Below are positions 17,590 to 21,678 of a stretch of DNA of 45,100 bases, piece by piece. The stretch spans positions 1 through 45,100 of the forward strand of contig CACHXC010000013.1 of NCBI GenBank assembly GCA_902583715.1, in the 5' to 3' direction. The position numbers and the translations under genes were made by a program. This stretch comes from an uncultured SAR116 cluster alpha proteobacterium (GTDB lineage Bacteria; Pseudomonadota; Alphaproteobacteria; Puniceispirillales; Puniceispirillaceae). The notes under the pieces are model-generated. The model was not told where the DNA came from. It was given only the letters and a program-made list of their open reading frames with translations, and did not search any database. Each line of letters begins with the position of its first letter. Positions within the stretch are counted from its first letter, which is position 1.

Positions 17590-17665
17590 GCTGGCGTGGC
17601 TCAATTGGTAGAGCACCCGATTTGTAATCGGGCGGTTGGGAGTTCGAGTCTCTCCGCCAGCACCA
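17590..17665 (+). tRNA. tRNA-Thr (anticodon TGT)
   Basis: A 76-base tRNA with acceptor stem GCTGGCG/CGCCAGC, anticodon stem CCCGA/TCGGG around loop TTTGTAA (anticodon TGT), T-arm GTTCGAGTC and an encoded CCA. It marks the left edge of the AT-rich accessory region. No second copy of its 3' end was found in the window. Confidence 0.97.
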
Positions 17666-17722: not shown

Positions 17723-17929
17723 TTAGTTCCTGAACTTACGTTGCTCAGACTCGTCGAGGATGAGATATGCAAGAACATCAGGTTCACGGCCTTTTTTATA
17801 CTTCCATTTGAAGTGGCAGCTATCCATTTCCGCATATTCTACAAAATGCTCTAGCCAAAATTCAAACTCATCTTTTGCTTCCTTAAACGTAGGCTCATGC
17901 CCATCATTGTCCTCGTCTGCTGAGGTCAT
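17723..17929 (-). CDS. Small acidic protein of unknown function
   Basis: This 68-residue product is acidic at the start (TSADEDNDGHEPTF) and rich in aromatic residues (EFEFWLEHFVEYAEMDSCHF), ending in a charged stretch. I do not recognise a family. It is the last gene of a tight four-gene minus-strand operon; its ATG lies one base after the stop of the DUF5710-like gene. That packing is the main support that it is real. Confidence 0.6.
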   Translation of the reverse strand: MTSADEDNDGHEPTFKEAKDEFEFWLEHFVEYAEMDSCHFKWKYKKGREPDVLAYLILDESEQRKFRN

Positions 17930-17930
17930 G

Positions 17931-18116
17931 CTAGGCTATCGGGAAGACATTGGTTTTGCTACCCGAATTTTTCGGCCACCATTTCTTGAACAAGTTCCTG
18001 TCCACATCATTTGGCACATACCACTTCCGGGCATCGTTATCCCACCAGCCTCCAAGAGACTTGCAGTCATCCTTCTCGTCATATGGACAGTTCAAATAAA
18101 AGCGGTCATTAGACAT
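17931..18116 (-). CDS. DUF5710-like small domain protein
   Basis: A 61-residue protein that is almost entirely one domain: RFYLNCPYDEKDDCKSLGGW followed by WDNDARKWYVPNDVD. This matches the DUF5710 pattern (YLNVPY-x-EKD-x-AK-x-LGARWD-x-KWYVP), which is known on plasmid and phage proteins such as TraC-type primases. Its function is unknown. The ATG at 18116 has AGGA seven bases upstream; an ATG two codons earlier is too close to that site. It overlaps the end of the preceding gene by eight bases. Confidence 0.75.
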   Translation of the reverse strand: MSNDRFYLNCPYDEKDDCKSLGGWWDNDARKWYVPNDVDRNLFKKWWPKNSGSKTNVFPIA

Positions 18117-18438
18117 GAGCATTTCCTTTCGCTTGTGATGGTTGCGGAGTGATGGGTCTTTTCATCACCACGCTATCTTTGGTTTCAAAAGCCACGTCAA
18201 AGAGACGGTCATTGATGACATGAACAAAGCGGTGCTGTGACAGCGCAGACCTCAGGTAAAGCCAGCCTTTGAATACCTCTTTCAGATTGTCATCTTGAAG
18301 TTGGCGAGGCAGTGGCTTGGCAAACCAATGTGAACCAGATTGTTTCAATATGGCCGCACCCTCAGGACATTTAGCTTTAAGAACAACAAGCGTGTTCTTG
18401 TCGAATGGAAATGTTTGCTCAGGCTTACTGTTGTTCAT
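18109..18438 (-). CDS. Hypothetical protein of the DUF5710 operon
   Basis: A 109-residue protein of no family I recognise. It has no membrane segment or signal peptide; the middle reads SGSHWFAKPLPRQLQDDNLK and the end is Pro/Lys-rich. The start MNNSKPEQTF is fixed by GGAGG five bases upstream, inside the 3' end of the preceding small gene, which it overlaps by 14 bases. Confidence 0.65.
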   Translation of the reverse strand: MNNSKPEQTFPFDKNTLVVLKAKCPEGAAILKQSGSHWFAKPLPRQLQDDNLKEVFKGWLYLRSALSQHRFVHVINDRLFDVAFETKDSVVMKRPITPQPSQAKGNAHV

Positions 18439-18595
18439 ACAGCCCTCCATGCATTTCCATTCCTGCAACAATGTCTTTTGCAACGTCACCTAATAAACGC
18501 ATGGGTTCAGGCAACATGCCTTTTATCTCCATGAACTCAATTAAGGCTTCGTTACGCCTTACTTCTCGCATCACAGCTTTTAATTCCTCACGCAT
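18425..18595 (-). CDS. Small helical protein, first gene of the DUF5710 operon
   Basis: A 56-residue reading frame starting MREELKAVMREVRRNEALI and ending GGLYEQQ. It is highly charged and probably a helical coil. It has a perfect ribosome-binding site (AGGAGG, five bases, ATG) and overlaps the next gene, whose own ribosome-binding site lies within it. These two facts make it a convincing gene despite its size. Function unknown. Confidence 0.7.
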   Translation of the reverse strand: MREELKAVMREVRRNEALIEFMEIKGMLPEPMRLLGDVAKDIVAGMEMHGGLYEQQ

Positions 18596-18813: not shown

Positions 18814-19014
18814 ATGATGGAAAGTTGGATTTGTTATAAATGTGGTGGATACAATGTCTTTGAAACAATGCTTGTTCGCATCAACAGACTTGCTTGTATC
18901 ATTGATACTTATGAAGACCTGCGAGGGCTAGAAGATGCCAAAGGATGGTGCGAAGATTGCGATGAGTATGTGGAGTTAATTGAAACAGATGTGCCTCTGT
19001 ACGCTGAGATATGA
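18814..19014 (+). CDS. Small zinc-ribbon-like protein
   Basis: A 66-residue protein with two cysteine pairs, CYKCGG near residue 8 and CEDC near residue 46, spaced like the two knuckles of a zinc ribbon. The region between is helical and the end acidic. It starts immediately after the hairpin described at 18765-18812. It is the first full gene of the plus-strand operon that ends with the polymerase-like gene. Role unknown; nucleic-acid binding is a reasonable guess from the fold only. Confidence 0.65.
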   Translation: MMESWICYKCGGYNVFETMLVRINRLACIIDTYEDLRGLEDAKGWCEDCDEYVELIETDVPLYAEI

Positions 19015-19106: not shown

Positions 19107-19301
19107 ATGGGTTTTGTTTTTGGAGTATTGAGGTTTTTCAGATTGCCATTGCAAGTGGCGTTTGGTCTGTACTTTGCTTTCATGATGTTGATGTTCACAG
19201 TTGCCGGTATTGCTTACTTTGCCGAGGGCTTTGATTACTGCAATGAGTTCAAGTTTGCGGTGGGTGCTGGGCAGGTGCTGCCTAATCTTTGGAAACTGTA
19301 A
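19107..19301 (+). CDS. Small membrane protein in the polymerase operon
   Basis: A 64-residue protein with one or two membrane-spanning stretches (LPLQVAFGLYFAFMMLMFTV and the segment after it). I recognise no family. Its stop codon overlaps the ATG of the polymerase-like gene by one base (TAATG), so the two are probably translated together, which points to a shared role. Confidence 0.6.
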   Translation: MGFVFGVLRFFRLPLQVAFGLYFAFMMLMFTVAGIAYFAEGFDYCNEFKFAVGAGQVLPNLWKL

Positions 19302-20650
19302 TGAACGAATACCTCGAAGACATTGTTAATCGGATAGCCGAACAAATAGCGTCATTAGAGGGGCGTGACCGTAAGCGGAAAGCTGAAGCTCAATTTCATT
19401 TTCTGCACGGTATCGAGCATCTGCTTATCCAATTGTGGAAAGGCACCAAAATTCATGATGGTTACGAGGGCGGCGTCAACAAACGTGCAGGATGGTATTC
19501 AGAGCATCCTCAATACAGAGACCCAAACCTAACATACAAGCAAACTATTGCAGCTTACGATGGAATGATTGCTCTTGGCCTTATTCAAGAAACACAGCGT
19601 GGCTATTTCAATCGTGAGACGCTCGAAGGAAGCATCACCCGCTTCATCGCTACGGATGATTTGCTGTCATTATTTTCTGAAGTTAAAGAAGACCCATTTG
19701 TGTTCATAAAGCCCAATCTTGATGCACAATGCATTATCATGCGTGATGACGTTGATGGGCATAAAAAACAAGTTGAGTACCTTGAGACACCAGCTGTCAC
19801 AGAAATGCGTGACAATTTAAGACTAATCAATCGTTGTCTCGCAAAACACTATCCTGACATCAGGATTAAAGATGATGATTGGATGCCGCTTCAAAAAAGA
19901 ATAATGGCTGACCCGGATAAACGGCCGATTGATTTAACCAGACGCACTCTAGTTCGTATTTTTGCAGAGGGTCAATTTGACAGGGGTGGGAGGTTCTACC
20001 GAGGTTGGTGGCAAAACGTTCCAAGTGAGTACCGTAGGTTTATTACGATTGCGGGTAAACGGACCTGTGAATACGACTACTCTCAGCTGAATCCACATAT
20101 GATTTACTTTCTTCGTGAAAAAGAGCTGGGGAGTGAAGATGCATACAGCAGAGTGTTTGATGGAGAACATCGAGACCTCGTTAAAGAGGCCTTCAACGCA
20201 ATGATTCAATCCTCAACACCTCTCATACAGGAACCCAACGACATAGATTTAAGCGAAGTTGATTTTGATTGGGCGGTATTAAGGCAGGCAGTATTGGACG
20301 CCCATAAACCTATTCAAGACATGTTCTTTCAAGGCCATGGTAATTACCTGCAGTACGTAGATAGCGTGATGGCTGAAGACATCATGCTCAAATTCGTGAA
20401 ATCTGATTTTGCGCCTGTCTTACCAGTGCATGATAGCTTCATAATGCATCATGCCTATGGAGAACTTGGCGAGTTGGAGGAGGATATGAGACGAGCATTT
20501 CACGGGCATTTCAAGAAGGACATAAAAGTTAAAGAGGAAATTGGCGTGATGCTGCCATCATCATTCGACGGTAAAGATTGGCATGAGCTAACTTTTGAGG
20601 AAAAGGTTCATGGACCGCCTGAGTATAGTGGCTGGGAAAGCAGAAATTAA
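19301..20650 (+). CDS. Orphan single-chain polymerase-like protein (family A / T7 RNAP superfamily)
   Basis: This 449-residue protein carries the palm motifs of the Pol I / T7 RNA polymerase superfamily. GGRFYRGWWQNVP (229-241) corresponds to the TGR...LQNIP region of DNA polymerase I. Motif A is D259-YSQLN, with Asn264 where Pol I has the steric-gate Glu. Motif B is R291-x3-K295, with Gln303 where the O-helix Tyr is expected. LQYVDSVMAEDIM (350-362) mirrors the PIQGTAADI region. Motif C is H377-D378-S-F, as in T7 RNA polymerase rather than Pol I HDE. There is no exonuclease domain; residues about 30-125 may be a winged-helix-like DNA-binding region. Similar unnamed proteins occur in other bacteria, as far as I recall. 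Whether it makes DNA or RNA, or primes, cannot be told from sequence. The start at 19301 overlaps the upstream stop codon; an ATG at 19289 is an alternative. Confidence 0.75.
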   Translation: MNEYLEDIVNRIAEQIASLEGRDRKRKAEAQFHFLHGIEHLLIQLWKGTKIHDGYEGGVNKRAGWYSEHPQYRDPNLTYKQTIAAYDGMIALGLIQETQRGYFNRETLEGSITRFIATDDLLSLFSEVKEDPFVFIKPNLDAQCIIMRDDVDGHKKQVEYLETPAVTEMRDNLRLINRCLAKHYPDIRIKDDDWMPLQKRIMADPDKRPIDLTRRTLVRIFAEGQFDRGGRFYRGWWQNVPSEYRRFITIAGKRTCEYDYSQLNPHMIYFLREKELGSEDAYSRVFDGEHRDLVKEAFNAMIQSSTPLIQEPNDIDLSEVDFDWAVLRQAVLDAHKPIQDMFFQGHGNYLQYVDSVMAEDIMLKFVKSDFAPVLPVHDSFIMHHAYGELGELEEDMRRAFHGHFKKDIKVKEEIGVMLPSSFDGKDWHELTFEEKVHGPPEYSGWESRN

Positions 20651-20820: not shown

Positions 20821-21123
20821 ATGAAATATTTTGTTATAGCTCTTGCAGCCTTTTTCATCAGCTCGACTGCTCATGCGGCTTGCACCACGTTCGGCACCAT
20901 GACTAGCTGCTCCGATGGCAATACTTACAACAAAATTGGTAACACAATCTACGGCAGTAATTCACGCACCGGTTCGAGTTGGAGTCAGACAACGATAGGT
21001 AACTCAACGTATGGCACTGCCAGTGATGGGAGCAGCTGGAGTACAACTCGCATGGGTAACAGCAGTTGGGGAACAGACAGCAGTGGCAATTCTTGGAGCT
21101 GCTTTGGCAACGTCTGTAATTAG
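20821..21123 (+). CDS. Secreted Gly/Ser/Thr-rich repeat protein
   Basis: A 100-residue protein with a clear Sec signal peptide (MKYFVIALAAFFISSTAHA, cleavage before ACTT). The mature part is made of imperfect repeats of about 20 residues built on GN-S/T-x-Y/W-G-T, such as IGNSTYGTASDGSSWSTT and MGNSSWGTDSSGNSWS, with cysteines only near the two ends. GGAGG lies six bases before the ATG. Short repeats rich in Gly, Ser and Asn suggest a beta-rich extracellular or periplasmic protein. Function unknown. Confidence 0.75.
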   Translation: MKYFVIALAAFFISSTAHAACTTFGTMTSCSDGNTYNKIGNTIYGSNSRTGSSWSQTTIGNSTYGTASDGSSWSTTRMGNSSWGTDSSGNSWSCFGNVCN

Positions 21124-21126
21124 GCT

Positions 21127-21224
21127 CATCTGTGTAACAGCCCAACAATATACATCCGACACACCCCCTGTGGTGCTGCATGGGGGGTGTGTACGTTAGA
21201 TGTTATTGAGCTGTTACACAGATG
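21127..21224. repeat. Nested inverted repeats between convergent genes
   Basis: A perfect 15-base outer repeat (CATCTGTGTAACAGC with its complement at 21210-21224) encloses a perfect 10-base inner repeat (ACACACCCCC at 21159-21168 with GGGGGTGTGT at 21183-21192). The structure lies between two genes that point at each other and reaches into the 3' end of the DUF411 gene. It may be a bidirectional terminator or a small MITE-like insertion; I saw no target-site duplication. Confidence 0.7.
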
Positions 21225-21678
21225 GGGGTTGGGAGTGGCTGTTGAAAACTTGGGTTTTACCATTTTCAAACACCAGTAGAGTGTCAAATGGCTCTTTGTT
21301 ATTCCCCATCTCCATACCAGGAGAACCAATGGGCATACCTGGTACACTCAAGCCACGAGCATTTGGTTTTTCGGTGAGTAACTTGAATATATCTTCCGCA
21401 GGCACATGGCCTTCGATGAAGTAGCTGCCGATTGTGGCCGTATGGCATGAACTAAGTTCTGCAGATATGCCCAATTGTGTCTTTATTAGACCTAATGCTT
21501 CTTCATCGACATAGTTTACTTCTGTTCTCAGACCTGCCGAGTTCATTCTCTCTACCCACGCACCACAGCAACCGCAAGTCTCTGTGCGATTGACAATCAA
21601 GGCGTCCGGGAACGCAAAGCCACTCGTTGGGAAAGTGGTGAGGGCGATTGTTCCAATCAAAAATTCACGACGAAGCAT
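21214..21678 (-). CDS. DUF411 family exported protein (putative metal-binding)
   Basis: A 154-residue protein with a signal sequence beginning MLRREFLIGTIALTTFP. It has the DUF411 pattern: ETCGCCGAWVERMNSAGL with CxCC-type cysteines, a later SCHTA, then EGHVPAEDIFKLL and GLSVPGMPIGSPGME. DUF411 proteins are often found near copper-resistance genes and are thought to bind metal in the periplasm. No copper genes are adjacent here. The end is slightly short or variable, where the inverted repeat overlaps it. Confidence 0.85.
   Translation of the reverse strand: MLRREFLIGTIALTTFPTSGFAFPDALIVNRTETCGCCGAWVERMNSAGLRTEVNYVDEEALGLIKTQLGISAELSSCHTATIGSYFIEGHVPAEDIFKLLTEKPNARGLSVPGMPIGSPGMEMGNNKEPFDTLLVFENGKTQVFNSHSQPPSV

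What the first reader, a model, noticed from the sequence alone, without database searches (positions are those of the whole stretch)
19301..20650. Orphan polymerase with mixed DNA-polymerase and RNA-polymerase motifs
The sequence shows all three palm motifs of the Pol I / T7 RNA polymerase superfamily. The steric-gate Glu of Pol I is Asn264, motif C is HDSF as in T7 RNA polymerase, and the O-helix Tyr position is Gln303. Known family facts: that Glu excludes ribonucleotides in family A DNA polymerases. Inference: the enzyme may accept ribonucleotides and act as a primase or RNA polymerase. There is no exonuclease domain, and the neighbours are tiny zinc-ribbon and membrane proteins, not phage replication genes.
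Basis: partly seen in the sequence, partly recalled or inferred. Interest (0 to 1): 0.82.

Follow-up and report, generated by a model that had tools for sequence, protein, structure and literature searches.

The report
Island-borne polymerase lacking DNA-sugar gate
A marine bacterium carries, beside a transfer-RNA gene where mobile DNA islands insert, a small polymerase related to both DNA polymerase I and T7-type RNA polymerase that has lost the residue which normally keeps RNA building blocks out; its kind was described from phages, and its function is untested.

Summary
The window (SAR116-type alphaproteobacterium) encodes an intact 449-residue protein with the palm motifs of the Pol I / T7 RNA polymerase superfamily. 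AlphaFold plus Foldseek place it with family A DNA polymerases and mitochondrial RNA polymerases. D259 and D378 are kept in 76 of 76 aligned relatives. The Pol I steric-gate Glu is absent in all 59 aligned bacterial members and kept in 5 of 17 phage members. Those five form one clade, and 4 of them also have a DNA-polymerase-like xDE motif C.

It is not an orphan. It belongs to divPolA2, described in 2024 from tailed phages, where the authors already suggested repair DNA polymerase or RNA polymerase.

What I did not find in print is the bacterial branch. In 22 of 68 loci it shares a stretch with a tyrosine integrase set directly at a tRNA 3' end, and in 12 of these 22 direct tRNA repeats enclose the polymerase (islands of 8-18 kb). 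The window copy lies at such a tRNA-Thr hotspot, but it has no integrase.

Most likely it is an RNA-synthesising or sugar-indiscriminate polymerase serving the island. A DNA-polymerase or anti-phage role is not excluded: only 11 of 66 long integrase matches have a polymerase within 15 kb.

The parts
17590..17665 (+). tRNA-Thr (TGT) gene, the probable integration site
   Evidence: ARAGORN and Rfam. Of 9 RlmB-tRNA-Thr sites found in 16 genomes of the genus (own included), 5 carry this integrase or polymerase.
17723..17929 (-). small gene, 68 aa, no Pfam match
   Evidence: ORF; Pfam scan
17931..18122 (-). small gene with DUF5710 domain, 63 aa
   Evidence: Pfam DUF5710 E 7e-18; related ORFs within 5 kb of the polymerase in 4 other loci
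18109..18489 (-). small gene, 126 aa, no Pfam match
   Evidence: ORF; Pfam scan
18814..19014 (+). zinc-ribbon-like protein, 66 aa, two CxxC pairs
   Evidence: sequence; related ORFs within 5 kb of the polymerase in 3 other loci; Pfam zf-UBP only E 0.03, below cut-off
19107..19301 (+). small membrane-type protein, 64 aa, stop overlaps the polymerase start by one base
   Evidence: sequence; similar ORF with the same overlap in L002
19301..20650 (+). divPolA2-type polymerase, 449 aa: R231, D259, N264, R291, K295, Q303, Q351, D354, S355, H377-D378-S379-F380
20821..21123 (+). small Ser/Gly-rich ORF with hydrophobic N-terminus, 100 aa; membership of the island unsure
   Evidence: ORF; no Pfam match
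21127..21224 (.). two inverted copies of a conserved island-associated DNA site forming a 98-nt hairpin
   Evidence: inverted repeat, arms 81% complementary; fold z -5.7; model hits E 6e-17 and 7e-17, both training sequences; other copies near integrases and polymerases

Best explanation
The protein is a member of the RNA-polymerase-like part of the divPolA2 family, left by a mobile island that integrated at tRNA-Thr. Shown: the predicted polymerase fold, conserved catalytic residues, loss of the Glu steric gate, purifying selection, and residence of relatives in tRNA-integrase islands. Inferred: it copies a DNA template with ribonucleotides, or with either sugar. Its N-terminal domain, which may bind DNA, would let it start at a site on its own island. 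That would prime replication of the excised island or transcribe it, so that the island depends less on host primase and RNA polymerase. The window copy is an island remnant whose integrase was lost while the polymerase stayed intact.
For: Fold: AF2 pLDDT 87.8, pTM 0.85. Best PDB matches are family A DNA polymerases, with mitochondrial RNA polymerases close behind (none below E 1e-3). A lower-confidence model of the distant member L040 gives 23 matches at E up to 1e-3, all family A DNA polymerases. Motif C and the DS stretch before it align with T7 RNAP. Glu gate absent in 59 of 59 bacterial and 12 of 17 phage members; 71 of 71 gate-less members lack Glu in motif C, while 4 of 5 Glu members have it. 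Island context: integrase in 31 of 68 loci, directly 3' of a tRNA in 22, direct tRNA-end repeats with the polymerase inside in 12 of these 22. Same tRNA-Thr site occupied in 5 of 9. The host has its own Pol I. dN/dS about 0.08-0.2 in five close pairs of relatives. Phage KASIA carries a member beside genes annotated Pol I, primase and RNA polymerase.
Against: Only 11 of 66 long integrase matches of this type have a polymerase within 15 kb, 1 of 10 in the two single-contig genomes, so most islands do without it. No promoter or origin recognised by it is shown. The Tyr that T7 RNAP uses for sugar choice (recalled) is missing too. His, Phe or Tyr at the gate place in 16 of 20 distant members may still exclude ribonucleotides. 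The top fold matches are DNA polymerases. The N-terminal DNA-binding idea rests on weak matches to CodY- and MarR-type regulators (E 0.26 and worse). No activity data exist.
Confidence: 0.4

Rival explanations
1. It is a DNA polymerase without proofreading, used for gap filling or repair during excision, integration or replication of the island. The Asn or His at the gate place still favours dNTPs.
For: Top Foldseek matches are DNA polymerases; the motif A region aligns, weakly, with Pol I; a phage clade keeps Glu, and 4 of its 5 keep xDE; Yutin et al. 2024 list repair DNAP as one option.
Against: Loss of Glu in all 59 aligned bacterial members, none of which has Glu in motif C; no exonuclease domain; the host already has Pol I.
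Confidence: 0.27
2. It is a cargo gene for conflict between phages or mobile elements, for example a polymerase that makes a toxic or interfering product when a phage enters.
For: Islands carry type I restriction-modification, OLD-like AAA, ImmA/IrrE-HTH and Vsr genes, and AbiE genes lie 3.5-5.5 kb from the member on a Thioclava plasmid. The polymerase is near a minority of these integrases. Phage members sit in variable neighbourhoods, some with paralogues.
Against: No PADLOC match for P0001 and two of four relatives; the other two gave weak partial matches to unrelated models. I recognised no fixed toxin or effector partner beside it among the neighbour families.
Confidence: 0.2
3. It is a degenerating passenger left behind with the island, with no present role in this strain.
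For: In the window the integrase and far att repeat are missing. The copy at the same site in G029 is broken, and L037 is broken too.
Against: The window frame is intact, and W and L002 show pN 0.16 against saturated pS.
Confidence: 0.08

Closest known systems
divPolA2 of Caudoviricetes phages (Yutin et al. 2024, PMC11348598; sections 13 and 14 read whole, other passages by word search)
   Same: Same family: the paper's model protein AUR84708 (Vibrio phage 1.063.O, MG592441.1) is one of the tblastn hits of the window protein. Similar length (430 and 449 aa), palm with catalytic Asp pair, no exonuclease, present besides another DNA polymerase.
   Different: The paper describes phage members, and its main text has no occurrence of 'integrase' or 'ribonucleotide'. 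The window protein is in a bacterial island clade, has no Glu gate and has HDSF, whereas AUR84708 keeps Glu and FDE.
T7-type single-subunit RNA polymerase
   Same: HDSF motif C and the DS-type stretch before it; no Glu gate.
   Different: About half the length (449 against 883 aa); no Tyr at K+8; no match to any Pfam family, RNA polymerases included.
Bacterial DNA polymerase I (PF00476)
   Same: R-x3-K O-helix, DYSQ motif A with a QN-P stretch before it; palm fold.
   Different: Asn at the Glu gate, Gln at K+8, motif C HDS instead of HDE, no exonuclease domain, no PF00476 match.
Primase-polymerase of Thermus ICETh2 (PMC7693054; start of abstract in search listing only)
   Same: A polymerase carried by an integrative element.
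   Different: Recalled to be of the archaeo-eukaryotic primase family, not of the Pol I superfamily; not compared here.

Membership tests
divPolA2 | sequence kinship with the phage family | tested here: met
   PHROG 4756 E 3.5e-40; tblastn to 21 phage records incl. MG592441.1 E 1e-5; 11 viral models at E <= 8e-14 in BFVD, incl. Rheinheimera phage Barba31A
divPolA2 | palm with catalytic Asp pair | tested here: met
   D259 and D378 in 76 of 76; spatial distance not measured
divPolA2 | no 3' exonuclease domain | tested here: met
   449 aa; no exonuclease family among the 18 families matched by any of 32 members at E <= 1
divPolA2 | N-terminal globular domain unlike the Pol I thumb | tested here: inconclusive
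   no Pfam match; weak matches to CodY- and MarR-type regulators
divPolA2 | present besides a regular DNA polymerase | tested here: met
   own genome has one PF00476 Pol I on contig 7
Single-subunit RNA polymerase | HDSF-type motif C | tested here: met
Single-subunit RNA polymerase | Tyr at K+8 of the O helix (T7 Tyr639, recalled) | tested here: not met
   Gln303; no Tyr in 39 close and 20 distant members
Single-subunit RNA polymerase | RNA synthesis from a promoter | not testable with these tools
   needs purified protein
DNA polymerase I | Glu steric gate in motif A | tested here: not met
   Asn264; 0 of 59 bacterial members have Glu
DNA polymerase I | PF00476 match | tested here: not met
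   no Pfam family at E <= 10 for P0001
tRNA-site integrative island | integrase directly 3' of the tRNA | tested here: not met
   met in 22 of 68 loci, not met in the window
tRNA-site integrative island | direct repeat of the tRNA 3' end at the far side | tested here: not met
   met in 12 of 22 relatives with tRNA plus integrase; in the window the longest match is 12 nt, shuffles reach 13
tRNA-site integrative island | same site occupied by such an island in relatives | tested here: met
   5 of 9 RlmB-tRNA-Thr sites of the genus, window included; 2 of the 9 too short to tell

The most novel reading that the evidence does not exclude
Integrative islands of Alphaproteobacteria carry their own compact RNA-synthesising polymerase, a further line of RNA polymerase or primase from the Pol I stock beside the T7/mitochondrial line. 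One family spans the change from a Glu-gated, DNA-polymerase-like phage clade to gate-less HDS members, so the switch of sugar specificity can be followed and tested in nature.
Probability: 0.33. Interest if true: 0.82.

Novelty: new variant of a known kind. Interest (0 to 1): 0.6.

Why it matters
The steric-gate Glu is the textbook reason why Pol I makes DNA. A family in which gated and gate-less enzymes are kin, with motif C changing together with the gate, is a natural test of how a DNA polymerase becomes an RNA polymerase. It also gives a published phage family of unknown role a bacterial, island-borne branch, which hints at what the enzyme is for: the life of mobile elements.

Tried and rejected
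Small plasmid idea: several relatives lie on contigs near 5 kb, but none of the 41 loci held then shows terminal overlap and the ends of L036 do not give a clear continuation; dropped. Viral-contig relatives: two scans of viral contigs found none. Attachment repeat in the window: not found. Integron attC reading of the hairpin at 21127-21224: by eye, without a tool, the box pattern did not fit; dropped. Solved-structure searches by sequence gave only one poor match each. The polymerase as a required core gene of these islands: not supported by the reverse search. Plasmid relatives are few (3 records in each of two searches).

The first profile (A1) therefore undercounts diverged members. A broader profile (A6) changed the count from 10 of 66 to 11 of 66 integrase matches and from 11 of 24 to 12 of 31 polymerase places.

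Other limits: the phylum search drew 398 genomes and the 23 with a match were the own genome and others of its class, but I do not know how many drawn genomes were of other classes. The integrase list was capped ('more matches are not listed'), and I chose the 66 long matches from it by eye, some with stops. The 31 polymerase places are the longer matches of 39 rows. The repeats were tested against plain letter shuffles. The expected numbers for sites near genes assume sites spread evenly over about 122 Mb. The eight sequences behind the site model came from loci with the polymerase; 4 of the 88 sites counted are among them. Paper searches other than PMC11348598 and PMC6715854 (three passages by word search) were seen as listings with the start of abstracts.

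Full report
What is there. The window is contig C13 of an incomplete 1.49 Mb genome whose nearest named relative by this protein is a SAR116-cluster alphaproteobacterium, 73% identical. The frame 19301-20650 is open and gives 449 residues. No Pfam or NCBIfam family matches even at E 10. PHROG 4756, of unknown function, matches at E 3.5e-40.

Fold. From an alignment of the window protein and 31 relatives (A1) AlphaFold2 gave a confident model, pLDDT 87.8 and pTM 0.85. Foldseek against the PDB ranks family A DNA polymerases first (E from 4.5e-3, none below 1e-3), with yeast and human mitochondrial RNA polymerases among the first 22. A second model, of the distant member L040, is of lower confidence (pLDDT 68.6, pTM 0.56). 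It still gives 23 PDB matches at E up to 1e-3, every one a family A DNA polymerase, with mitochondrial RNA polymerases from rank 25 on. Among viral models, 11 match at E 8e-14 or better. D259 ends a strand and D378 sits between two strands (secondary structure), as expected of a palm. I could not measure their distance.

Motifs. In 65 members (39 close, 20 distant bacterial, 6 phage) D259, D378, R231 and K295 are present in 65 of 65. With 11 more phage members added, D259 and D378 are present in 76 of 76. Nine loci with truncated or broken copies were left out beforehand, and two rows are identical. The place of the Pol I steric-gate Glu holds Asn in 38 and Ser in 1 of 39 close members. In the 20 distant members it holds His (11), Phe (4), Gly (2), Asn (2) or Tyr (1). 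Glu is kept in 0 of 59 bacterial and 5 of 17 phage members. Four of those five have xDE in motif C and the fifth HDD, while none of the 71 gate-less members has Glu there. The five form one clade with support 100/99. Profile alignment puts the motif A region on Pol I only weakly (3%, E 0.015) and the motif C region on T7 RNA polymerase (63%, E 7e-5); the integrase control gives 0.3%. Pol I and T7 RNAP do not find each other in the same test (0.2%), so its power is low. A Tyr at K+8 is absent in all 59 bacterial members. So these enzymes lack the sugar filters recalled for both relatives. What that means for substrate choice is inference.

Known family. tblastn finds relatives in 21 phage records, among them Vibrio phage 1.063.O. 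The protein at that place is AUR84708, the structural representative of divPolA2 in Yutin et al. 2024 (PMC11348598; sections 13 and 14 read whole, other passages by word search). The authors describe divPolA2 in phages, each barbavirus also encoding a PolB. They report no exonuclease, an N-terminal domain without known relatives, and suggest repair DNA polymerase or RNA polymerase. 'Integrase' and 'ribonucleotide' do not occur in the main text. Their modelled protein is of the Glu-gated kind. Full-text search finds the name divPolA2 in that paper and its preprint only. In the listings of eight further searches I saw no description of the bacterial members. The library holds open-licence PMC papers only.

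Distribution. With profile A1, matches occur in 22 of 61 genomes of the host family and 23 of 398 drawn from the phylum, own genome included, all of the same class. With the broader profile A6, matches at E up to 1e-10 occur in 22 of the 61. There are up to five match rows per genome and several broken copies. This is the scatter of a mobile gene. In the tree, bacterial members (59 rows) and phage members (17 rows) fall on two sides of one branch with support 91/94; the root is unknown. Five close pairs of relatives give dN/dS of about 0.08-0.2. W against L002 gives pN 0.16 with saturated pS.

Islands. Of 68 loci with the polymerase, many on short contigs, 31 hold a tyrosine integrase of one cluster; one member, L068, matches DUF6538 and Phage_integrase below Pfam's cut-offs. 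In 22 loci it begins within 520 bases of, or overlapping, the 3' end of a tRNA gene (Thr, Gly, Leu, Arg, Cys, Ala). In 12 of these 22 the tRNA 3' part recurs as a direct repeat, longer than in any of 50 shuffles, on the far side of the polymerase. The islands so defined are 7.7-18.2 kb. In 5 the significant repeat is inverted and lies 80 bases to about 1 kb past the integrase, and 5 show none beyond chance. Of 151 ORFs in the 12 islands I scanned 91 (those of 90 aa or more, polymerase and integrase left out). They gave restriction-modification, resolvase, OLD-like, ImmA/IrrE-type, Vsr and metabolic genes. No capsid, terminase or tail family appears among the 25 families listed from each library; 17 Pfam and 50 PHROG families were not shown. 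I recognised no replication initiator among those listed, though two members match a PHROG called DNA helicase.

The window copy. RlmB and tRNA-Thr stand upstream. RlmB was found in 9 of 16 genomes of the genus, own included. At all 9 sites the tRNA-Thr follows, and 5 of 9 carry this integrase or polymerase downstream: the window (polymerase), G028/L002 (polymerase, opposite direction), G029 (both, broken), G025 (integrase), G018 (integrase, broken). Two sites end within 350 bases of the tRNA and cannot tell; two show neither. The window itself has no such integrase and no far repeat. I read it as an island remnant with an intact polymerase. The preceding 64-aa membrane-type gene overlaps the polymerase start by one base, also in L002.

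Against the simplest story. Searching from the integrase side, 11 of 66 long integrase matches in 61 genomes have a polymerase within 15 kb, and 12 of 31 polymerase places have an integrase within 15 kb. That one is a diverged, intact polymerase beside an integrase. So the polymerase is an accessory of a subset of islands. This keeps a conflict or defence role open.

Conclusion. Identity as a bacterial divPolA2 polymerase: near certain. Island-borne: very likely. Use of ribonucleotides: about even. Service to the island by priming or transcription: the most likely single role, not shown. The finding is an island-borne, gate-less bacterial branch of a family known from phages.

Noticed in passing
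window 21127-21224; model R1 from L003, L035, L084, L086, L019 and the window: A conserved DNA site of about 75 bp with a 12-nt core, 11 positions of it invariant in 8 sequences. 88 sites in 28 of 61 family genomes, 31 of them within 3 kb of the integrase (about 0.7 expected) and 17 within 3 kb of the polymerase (about 0.13 expected; 4 are training sites). In the window two inverted copies form a strong hairpin. No Rfam family reaches its threshold there. Function unknown: island end, recombination site, terminator or origin.
   Followed up: partly
L003:8859, L020:7853, L031:6324, L083:8559, L084:7082: In five loci a 14-19 nt copy of the tRNA 3' end lies inverted 80 bases to about 1 kb past the integrase gene. 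This might allow inversion of a segment; the polymerase of L002/G028 points the other way from that of the window at the same tRNA.
   Followed up: no
window 21214-21678: DUF411 gene found in only 2 of 16 genomes of the genus, own included, so the variable region may run past the hairpin towards the Pal/Tol genes.
   Followed up: partly
L088:1-12810 (Shewanella phage KASIA): One phage carries genes annotated DNA polymerase I, primase and RNA polymerase, and a gate-less divPolA2 member, within about 14 kb: a possible laboratory source for comparing the two RNA-polymerase-like enzymes.
   Followed up: no
L079:11347-12105, L081:8272-9006 and three further loci: A gene family of about 244-252 aa with several Cys and His residues recurs within about 1.7 kb (centre to centre) of the polymerase in 5 loci (family 15); the L081 member has no Pfam match at E 0.01.
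   Followed up: no
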